From assembly GCA_018881555.1 (NCBI GenBank), contig JACAXG010000061.1, positions 2,356,001 to 2,420,000 of the forward strand: DNA of 64,000 nt, in the 5' to 3' direction. This DNA comes from Amblyornis subalaris. Its lineage: Eukaryota; Chordata; Aves; Passeriformes; Ptilonorhynchidae. Below are positions 12,639 through 14,665 of the stretch, piece after piece. The notes under the pieces are model-generated. The model was given only the letters and a program-made list of their open reading frames with translations. It was not told where the DNA came from and did not search any database. Each line of letters opens with the position of its first letter. Position 1 is the first letter of the stretch. Position numbers and translations under genes: made by a program.

Positions 12639-12725
12639 ATAGATGCAGTTCAACAGTTAGCAAAACAATGGGGACATTGGCTGATTCAGTGGAAAGCTTT
12701 AAATGCATCAACAAAAGCAGCCTTG
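12639..12725 (+). pseudogene. NUP42 duplicate, exon 5
   Basis: 87 bases, in frame. The first part is diverged from the intact copy (IDAVQQLAKQWGHWLIQW against IDAVQQLAVQWKNRLHQL), while the last 34 bases are identical. The border of the high-identity tract falls inside this exon. Confidence 0.85.
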
Positions 12726-13835
12726 GTAAGTGTTCACGAATGGCAAAAGGTTTCTGAGCCTGATCTCATTTTTGACTGAATTAATGTACACAGATGTTAA
12801 TTCCAGTTACAAAGACTTCTGAGATGTGGCAATTGTGATGTGCCACTTGGGCATATTCTCTGGAGTCCTGAAACCAGTCAACTGCAGGTTGGTGTTATAA
12901 ACCCCTTTAGTTAACTGAGGAAAAAAGTGTGGTTCCGTGTTAGCAAGGCAGCAGCTGGATCCCAGCTTTGGAATACTCTCATTGCAAGCCACGTGAAAGT
13001 CACCAGAGCTTAAGTTTGGGATCTGGTTGTGTNCATGACCAGNAAGAGGCCAATCCCNACCCCGCCTTTTTTTCCATGTGCTGATGTTGACTCTTCCAAG
13101 ATAGAACCAGCAGACCAGACCAGACTGGCATTGCCCTCCAGGCCATCTTAGGATAAATGGAGCATTTGGGTAATGTCAGAATTGAGAGATAGGTGGGAGA
13201 GAAGCACTTTGGATAACATTTGAAGATAGAAAGGGTCATTGGTTCTGGGAAGGTGACAAACACTTGTGAATGGAGATGTTTTTTCAGAAGCAATTCCTTG
13301 AGTTAAAGCCAATATGAAATGCCCAGGGAGACAGAGGAAGTGGCTTTCTTGAAGAGGAGTCTGGATGAAGTGCATTAAAGGTTTGGTAGTATGATCCCAG
13401 CCCTTGGTCTGTTCAATGCTGAAGGTGGACAAGCAGGATTTGGGCTTTACCACAGGAGTCTGGATGTGCCAAGGAGAGAGAACAGAGTGAGTCAAAGCTA
13501 TGCCCTAAATCCAGTGACAAAGCACAACCTGAAATAGTAAAAGGTGAGAATGGGAGCTCCCAGAGGTGATCAGGTTGTTGACTGACAGGCANAAGNCTAT
13601 CACATGTAACAGATGTGCNTTTCTGGAGTGTTTTGCAGAGAAGAGTGTGTGTAGCCTTAGAGCAGGTTGTTCATAGCTGCAGGAGCCTGCAATCACGAGG
13701 AGTGATCACTGTCCAGCGTGGTCTGAGTTGGATTAAGTAGGACTGGGCTGCTGTATTATTGCTTCAAATAGTCACTGAAAGACAGTTCCCCGTTTTGGAA
13801 TCGAGTTTTCATGTATGTCTCTGGAATTTTTTCAG

Positions 13836-13920
13836 CTCTCTGCTTTCAAGAGCACGAGCACTCAACCAGCCCCTGCCTTCGGATTGGGAGGACAGCAAAC
13901 CTCAAGCTTTGGGCTGTCAA
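13836..13920 (+). pseudogene. NUP42 duplicate, exon 6
   Basis: 85 bases encoding LSAFKSTSTQPAPAFGLGGQ, QTSSFGLS. I see no difference from intact exon 6. Splice sites are intact. Confidence 0.85.
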
Positions 13921-14059
13921 GTAAGTTCCTGCCCTAAGAACCAAAACACAGAAACATTTTCTGTAGTTTGCTGTTGCTGCTGCATCTTTGAAATAGAGCA
14001 GTGGTTTAGTATCCTTGGAGCACCCATTCTAATATTTTTTACAAATTCTACACTTGCAG

Positions 14060-14565
14060 GCTTTCCTGTGAGCAGCAGCAGCACCAGCGCCAGCAATTTC
14101 TCTTTTAAAACCAGTTCCAGCCTCATCAGTTCAACATCATCTGGGAGCAGCTCTGCTGCTGGGATCTCTTCTGCTGCTGGAAATCCTCCTGCATTTGGGG
14201 TGACGTCCTCTCCTAGCACACCCCAATCCGTTGGGTTTGGCAGCTCGGCCGCTCCATCTGCGGCCTCCTTCTCGTTTAAAACAGCTGCCACAACTGGTGC
14301 CTTTGGGACTTCTGGCTTTTCAGGCTTTGGCAGTGCTGCTGCTCTGAACTCTTCAAGCACCGCTCCACTCCCAGCCTTTGGAGCCTTTAATGCTGCTGTA
14401 GCCACTTCTGCCTCGGCTCCGAGCGGTGCTTTATTTGGACAGAGTGCCAGTGCCTCTGGACATCCTGTCAGCTCAGCATCTGCTGCAGCCACCAACACCA
14501 ACACTGCCTCAGAGAAGTTATTCACACCCAAGGGCAAATTATCAGCTGAAGAGTGGCAAGTTTGA
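14060..14565 (+). pseudogene. NUP42 duplicate, exon 7 with early stop
   Basis: Ser/Ala-rich FG-repeat exon, almost identical to the intact copy until a 2-bp deletion just after GAGTGGCAA. That deletion gives EEWQV and a stop at 14563-14565, about 36 codons before the intact protein ends. Confidence 0.85.
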
Positions 14566-14665
14566 AGCAAAGGAGTTCACAATTGGAAAGATTCCTCTTA
14601 AGCCACCACCATTAGAACTTTTAAATGCTTCTGACCTTTTAGGTTTTGTTCTGAAATTTTGTTAA

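What the first reader, a model, noticed from the sequence alone, without database searches (positions are those of the whole stretch)
12692..14628. Sharply bounded 1.94-kb near-identical tract shared by two otherwise diverged NUP42 copies
From the last 34 bases of exon 5 to 27 bp before the intact gene's normal stop, the pseudogene and the intact gene (23663-25601) differ at only about ten places by my count, introns included. Just left of the border, exon 5 and its intron are clearly diverged, with clustered changes. Just right of it, the 3'UTRs are also clearly diverged. Selection cannot keep introns identical, so this looks like recent gene conversion laid over an old duplication. A false duplication or mis-joined contig in the assembly would look similar, and single Ns cluster in both tracts.
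Basis: seen in the sequence. Interest (0 to 1): 0.75.

Follow-up and report, generated by a model that had tools for sequence, protein, structure and literature searches.

The report
Dead gene half rewritten by neighbour
In a songbird, a broken copy of a nuclear-pore gene carries a 1.9-kb stretch copied very recently from its working neighbour, and proteins of other perching birds suggest that the same end of the gene has been recopied several times over during their evolution.

Summary
Copy A (12692-14628) and copy B (23663-25601) differ by 7 substitutions and 3 small indels, while the flanks differ by 26% and 22%, stepping at those bases. B is an intact 440-residue NUP42. A lost its start codon and exons 2-3, and a 2-bp deletion inside the tract removes its Gle1-binding end. 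Searches of the assembly with the tract and both A flanks found no displaced original, only an old intronless retrocopy.

The new result is comparative. Upstream NUP42 copies show in proteins of ten other passerines. In exon 5, window A groups with two sparrow A copies (97/92; unresolved in a wider row set). In exons 6-7, eleven A-type rows instead fall in seven places among B copies, and A monophyly is rejected. The best reading is repeated B-to-A gene conversion confined to one 3' module, not a one-off and probably not an assembly slip. Conversion of a pseudogene by its parent is a known process; its recurrence at one place is the interesting part. An assembler's switch between paralogs here cannot be excluded without reads.

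The parts
12692..14628 (+). Near-identical tract in copy A (recipient, inferred): last 34 bp of exon 5, intron 5, exon 6, intron 6 and most of exon 7
23663..25601 (+). Matching tract in copy B (donor, inferred)
11375..12691 (+). Old, diverged 5' part of copy A: exon 1 relic without start codon, exons 2-3 absent, exon 4 (12052-12128) and the first 53 bp of exon 5 (12639-12691) with splice sites kept
14629..14840 (+). Old, diverged 3' flank of copy A (46 of 212 comparable columns differ from B)
14558..14559 (+). Site of the 2-bp deletion in A; the shifted frame stops after EEWQV, before the Gle1-binding motif
18786..25641 (+). Copy B, intact NUP42, 440 residues: exons 18786-18900, 20313-20565, 21230-21324, 21643-21719, 23610-23696, 24807-24891, 25031-25641
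   Evidence: CCCH finger; Gle1-binding fragment in PDB 6b4f and 7tbl

Best explanation
An old tandem duplication of NUP42 in passerines left an intact gene (B) and an upstream copy (A) that lost its 5' half. Since then non-crossover interlocus gene conversion has repeatedly copied B's 3' module (end of exon 5 to about the stop codon, about 2 kb, introns included) onto A, in this species very recently. Shown here: the sharp tract, the diverged flanks, the damage to A, the conflict between the exon 5 tree and the exons 6-7 tree, and the scatter of A copies over several lineages. Inferred: the direction B to A; that each transfer is break repair in A templated by B; that the borders hold because the flanks (74% and 78% identical) now hinder strand exchange; and that breaks recur near the gene's 3' end because birds lack PRDM9 and keep their recombination sites.
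For: Sharp two-sided step with introns included. Both flanks old and in register. Exons 6-7: 11 A-type rows in seven places among B copies, at least 7 label changes forced by starred branches; A clade rejected, p-AU 2.6e-78 for 11 rows, 1.9e-87 for 8 oscine rows, 6.8e-184 for the three WLIQ rows. Exon 5: window A + Passerculus A + Onychostruthus A one clade 97/92, window A + window B rejected p 0.025; WLIQ in 2 of 179 fetched records, both A copies. Direction: in exons 4-5 the retrocopy agrees with B at 11 and with A at 4 of 21 differing sites; inside the tract A's I and K occur in no other of 63 rows and its frameshift breaks a conserved motif.
Against: Read depth and spanning reads were not available. 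11 of 33 Ns cluster in the tracts. The exon 5 clade rests on 29 columns and on leaving out the misannotated Malurus row and the Sylvia and Chamaea A rows; with them it shows in 8% of bootstrap trees. Only proteins of other birds were at hand; a B copy of the same species covering exons 6-7 was in my set for the window and Geospiza alone. Manakin A copies read YNCR in exon 4 like non-passerines while window A reads YDSR like passerine B, so one shared duplication is not shown for suboscines. At 14361 it is A, not B, that matches the retrocopy. The 1.94-kb tract is longer than the usual mean of 50 to several hundred bp (PMC3924818, passages).
Confidence: 0.82

Rival explanations
1. Assembly error: reads of B were laid into A's place (paralog switch, gap filling or false duplication), so that the tract exists once.
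For: 11 of 33 single Ns fall in the tracts. Manakin records show assemblies breaking here: the Neopelma and Pseudopipra B parts lie on contigs of 6,995 and 10,171 bases, and Lonchura's B part ends at exon 5.
Against: No run of Ns in the window, whereas gaps between copies mark false duplications (PMC9516828, passages). Exact register at both borders. Ten differences including a 2-bp frameshift. No displaced original found. The same pattern in records from other assemblies, e.g. Passerculus on a 157-Mb contig.
Confidence: 0.13
2. A single recent conversion in this lineage only; A-like proteins elsewhere are annotation or assembly mix-ups.
For: A labels in other birds come from predicted proteins; the Geospiza and Lonchura ones come from fused predictions.
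Against: Sparrow A records carry window A's derived exon 5 residues together with sparrow-type exons 6-7. Seven separate places in the tree.
Confidence: 0.12
3. Each lineage gained a new partial duplicate of exons 6-7 independently, with no conversion of an older copy.
For: The exons 6-7 tree alone would look the same.
Against: In the window both flanks of the tract are old homologues in register; window A and two sparrow A copies share derived exon 5 residues.
Confidence: 0.03
4. Selection keeps A's 3' half alike because it makes a useful short protein.
For: The Gle1-binding motif is intact in 7 of the 10 A-type rows that can be judged (the Geospiza front part ends before it).
Against: Introns 5 and 6 are as alike as the exons. 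Window A is frameshifted, and the Chamaea and Sylvia A records lack the motif.
Confidence: 0.02

Closest known systems
Interlocus (ectopic) gene conversion between a gene and its tandem pseudogene, e.g. CYP21A2/CYP21A1P or GBA/GBAP1 (examples recalled)
   Same: Tandem copies, one dead; bounded near-identical tract with introns; diverged flanks
   Different: Here the inferred direction is from gene to pseudogene, and the same 3' module recurs in several bird lineages
Concerted evolution of avian MHC class II genes (search listings only)
   Same: Paralogs resemble each other within lineages more than between them
   Different: A two-copy housekeeping gene, one copy degenerate, and homogenisation limited to one stretch
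False duplications in genome assemblies (PMC9516828, passages)
   Same: Near-identical neighbouring copies
   Different: No gaps, old homologous flanks in register on both sides, and the pattern recurs in other species' records

Membership tests
Interlocus gene conversion | Sharply bounded stretch of high identity between diverged paralogs, introns included | tested here: met
Interlocus gene conversion | Both copies keep their own flanks and register | tested here: met
Interlocus gene conversion | Tree conflict between tract and flank | tested here: met
   flank side unresolved
Interlocus gene conversion | Non-reciprocal transfer, donor unchanged | tested here: inconclusive
Interlocus gene conversion | Event seen in reads, pedigrees or shared polymorphism | not testable with these tools
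   no reads or population data
False duplication | Assembly gaps between the copies | tested here: not met
   only single Ns in the window
False duplication | Haploid or lower read depth and single-copy k-mers | not testable with these tools
   no reads
NUP42 (copy B) | CCCH finger, FG region, Gle1-binding motif, spliced open frame | tested here: met
   FG region by reading the translation
NUP42 (copy A as a working full-length gene) | Start codon, exons 2-3 and Gle1-binding motif present | tested here: not met

The most novel reading that the evidence does not exclude
The NUP42 pair carries a conversion domain fixed in place since early passerine history, which keeps regenerating the open frame of an otherwise dead copy. 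In several lineages that copy is expressed as a short NUP42 (FG repeats plus Gle1-binding motif, no zinc finger), and the site marks a stable recombination hotspot of a clade without PRDM9.
Probability: 0.12. Interest if true: 0.8.

Novelty: new member of a known kind. Interest (0 to 1): 0.5.

Why it matters
If true, it is a simple two-copy natural experiment, replicated over passerine lineages, on how long interlocus conversion can outlast divergence of the flanks, how its borders freeze, and whether bird recombination sites really stay put. It is also a warning: some passerine NUP42 gene models are fused, split or shortened here, so counts of NUP42 genes and selection tests on its 3' half need care.

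Tried and rejected
Simple recent duplication was rejected because both flanks are old homologues in register. Selection as the cause of identity was rejected because introns are included and window A is frameshifted. A displaced original A tract was sought in the assembly with the tract and both A flanks; none was found among the matches listed, but these searches score only the best candidates and the assembly may be incomplete. The third place, on contig C2, is an old intronless retrocopy, not the source. Raised G+C as a trace of biased conversion is only suggestive: B intron 5 is 45.1% against 33.2% for intron 4, but 9.0% of 491 windows outside the copies are as high. The exon 5 tree with the Malurus, Sylvia and Chamaea A rows was unresolved; I then left those rows out and report both. 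Paper searches: NUP42 with gene conversion 0 papers; NUPL2, birds and duplication 1, a turkey copy-number paper, one passage seen; NUP42, KLHL7 and GPNMB 4, listing only; NUP42 with passerine 0.

Full report
What is there. The window holds kelch-repeat exons near 3.9 and 9.3 kb and PKD and KLD domains near 54.3 and 57.6 kb. These fit KLHL7 and GPNMB, which I recall as the neighbours of NUP42. Copy B is an intact NUP42 with seven coding exons and GT-AG introns, 440 residues. It has a CCCH finger (PF00642 above its cut-off), and its C-terminal end matches the Gle1-binding NUP42 fragment of PDB 6b4f and 7tbl. Copy A, 7-11 kb upstream, aligns to B in four collinear pieces. Its start codon is gone and exons 2 and 3 are absent. 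Exons 4 and 5 keep their splice sites and frame but are diverged.

The tract. A 12692-14628 and B 23663-25601 differ by 7 substitutions and indels of 1, 1 and 2 bp. A two-border likelihood model puts the borders at exactly these bases; 7 of 1925 comparable columns differ inside and 117 of 482 outside. K2P is 0.0036 inside, 0.33 in the left flank and 0.26 in the right. If both ran at one rate, the last exchange is 1-1.5% as old as the duplication; counting all 11 N columns as real differences raises this about two and a half fold. The 2-bp deletion in A shifts the frame just before the Gle1-binding motif, so window A ends in EEWQV. The right border is 37 bp, not 27 bp, before B's stop.

Artefact check. 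The window has 33 single Ns and no longer run. Eleven fall in the tracts (p 2e-6), none at homologous positions of both copies, which shows local trouble in base calling. A search of the assembly (1.08 Gb, 820 contigs) with the tract gave A, B and two pieces of one place on contig C2. That place is an intronless retrocopy, 79% and 74% identical in its two DNA matches, with at least one internal stop. A's left flank gave A and three pieces of B. A's right flank gave A, B and 11 places elsewhere that cover only its last part, an interspersed repeat starting near 14886. So no displaced original of A's tract was found. Read depth could not be tested.

Other birds. Protein searches gave 179 records: the best 120 of 599 matches, four new among 65 and 55 new among 57. 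Besides full-length NUP42 they include short or oddly fused passerine proteins that fit an upstream A copy: Lepidothrix P0125, Neopelma P0126, Manacus P0145, Onychostruthus P0127, Passerculus P0129, Taeniopygia P0128, Chamaea P0148, Sylvia atricapilla P0150, and the front parts of Geospiza P0041 and Lonchura P0087, where exons 6-7 stand before 5' exons of the next copy. In Geospiza the first 78 residues of the two exon 6-7 copies are identical. A search drawn from window A's exons 4-5 listed 65 of 66 candidates, best identity 80%, and brought no protein with that A-type stretch. The A labels are mine, given before the tree.

Trees. I chose 59 of the 179 records by hand, which with the window's two copies and two split records gives 63 rows. 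Three rows with under 60 residues in exons 6-7 were dropped, leaving 60. The 11 A-type rows fall in seven places, and starred branches force at least seven label changes. One may be the duplication itself, so at least six homogenising episodes remain; six of the seven places are oscine. Manakin A rows (90/76), sylviid A rows (100/99) and estrildid A rows (97/75) each group together, so exchange is episodic, not continuous. One clade of all 11 A rows is rejected at p-AU 2.6e-78, of the 8 oscine rows at 1.9e-87, and of the three WLIQ rows at 6.8e-184. In exon 5 the opposite holds: window A, Passerculus A and Onychostruthus A are one clade at 97/92, and pairing window A with window B is rejected at p 0.025. 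That is on 29 columns, with Malurus (misannotated there) and the Sylvia and Chamaea A rows left out; with them the clade shows in 8% of bootstrap trees. WLIQ occurs in 2 of 179 fetched records, those two A copies.

Limits of the comparison. A B copy of the same species covering exons 6-7 was in my set only for the window and Geospiza; otherwise the nearest B is of a related genus. Manakin A copies read YNCR in exon 4 like non-passerines, while window A reads YDSR like passerine B, so manakin A may be older or separate, or window A's exon 4 may itself have been converted earlier. Manakin A proteins match B to the last residue, which fits either conversion past the stop or collapsed assemblies.

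Direction. In exons 4-5, left of the border, 21 sites differ between A and B; the retrocopy agrees with B at 11, with A at 4, with neither at 6. Pairwise dN/dS there is 0.49 on 42 codons, as expected if one copy is free and one constrained, but the sample is small. Inside the tract, A's isoleucine and lysine occur in none of the other 62 rows; 55 of 55 others with a letter at the second site have E. The frameshift is damage to a conserved motif. At the synonymous site 14361 A, not B, matches the retrocopy. B to A is likely, not proven.

How it works. Conversion occurs mainly above 80% identity, mean tracts run from 50 to several hundred bp, and overlapping transfers in one direction look like one long tract (PMC3924818, passages). 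The flanks are 74% and 78% identical, so exchange would restart mainly inside the module, which would freeze its borders. Birds lack PRDM9, and their recombination concentrates at transcription start and stop sites and CpG islands with apparent stasis (PMC10781513, passages); repeated use of a gene's 3' end is therefore plausible. In the two sparrow A rows and the zebra finch A row the C-terminus runs to LLSLF or LLSLL and stops where B continues RSNMF, so the right border lies near the stop there too. In the sparrows the left border lies right of exon 5's AVAK codons, somewhat further right than in the window. These border statements rest on proteins alone. Ages in years rest on recalled passerine divergence times.

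Species. The window pair falls beside Climacteris in the exons 6-7 tree (86/78), so it is probably a songbird of the treecreeper and bowerbird group; this is inference.

Noticed in passing
G000 contig C2, 5037939-5038815 (L005 4440-5316): Intronless, stop-bearing NUP42 retrocopy with non-passerine-like residues; a useful outgroup for this locus.
   Followed up: yes
19509-19691 and 11657-11832: A stretch downstream of exon 1 is conserved between the copies and resembles the alternative N-terminus of a Motacilla NUP42 isoform (P0035) and of Passerculus A (P0129): a possible alternative first exon.
   Followed up: partly
14886-15100: Interspersed repeat directly 3' of copy A, 71-79% identical to 11 places on other contigs.
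   Followed up: no
Athene noctua P0094 and P0131: Two NUP42 proteins listed with contigs of the same length (169,928,852 bases) in an owl, perhaps a separate duplication or two models of one gene.
   Followed up: no
Turkey chromosome 27, 157671-192870 (PMC6828962, one passage): A copy-number gain annotated with VPS45 and NUPL2; another NUP42-like copy may exist in galliforms.
   Followed up: no
23500-25900: G+C steps up inside the conversion domain (about 0.36 to 0.48 at the left border, 0.50 to 0.31 near the right); suggestive of biased conversion, not tested further.
   Followed up: partly
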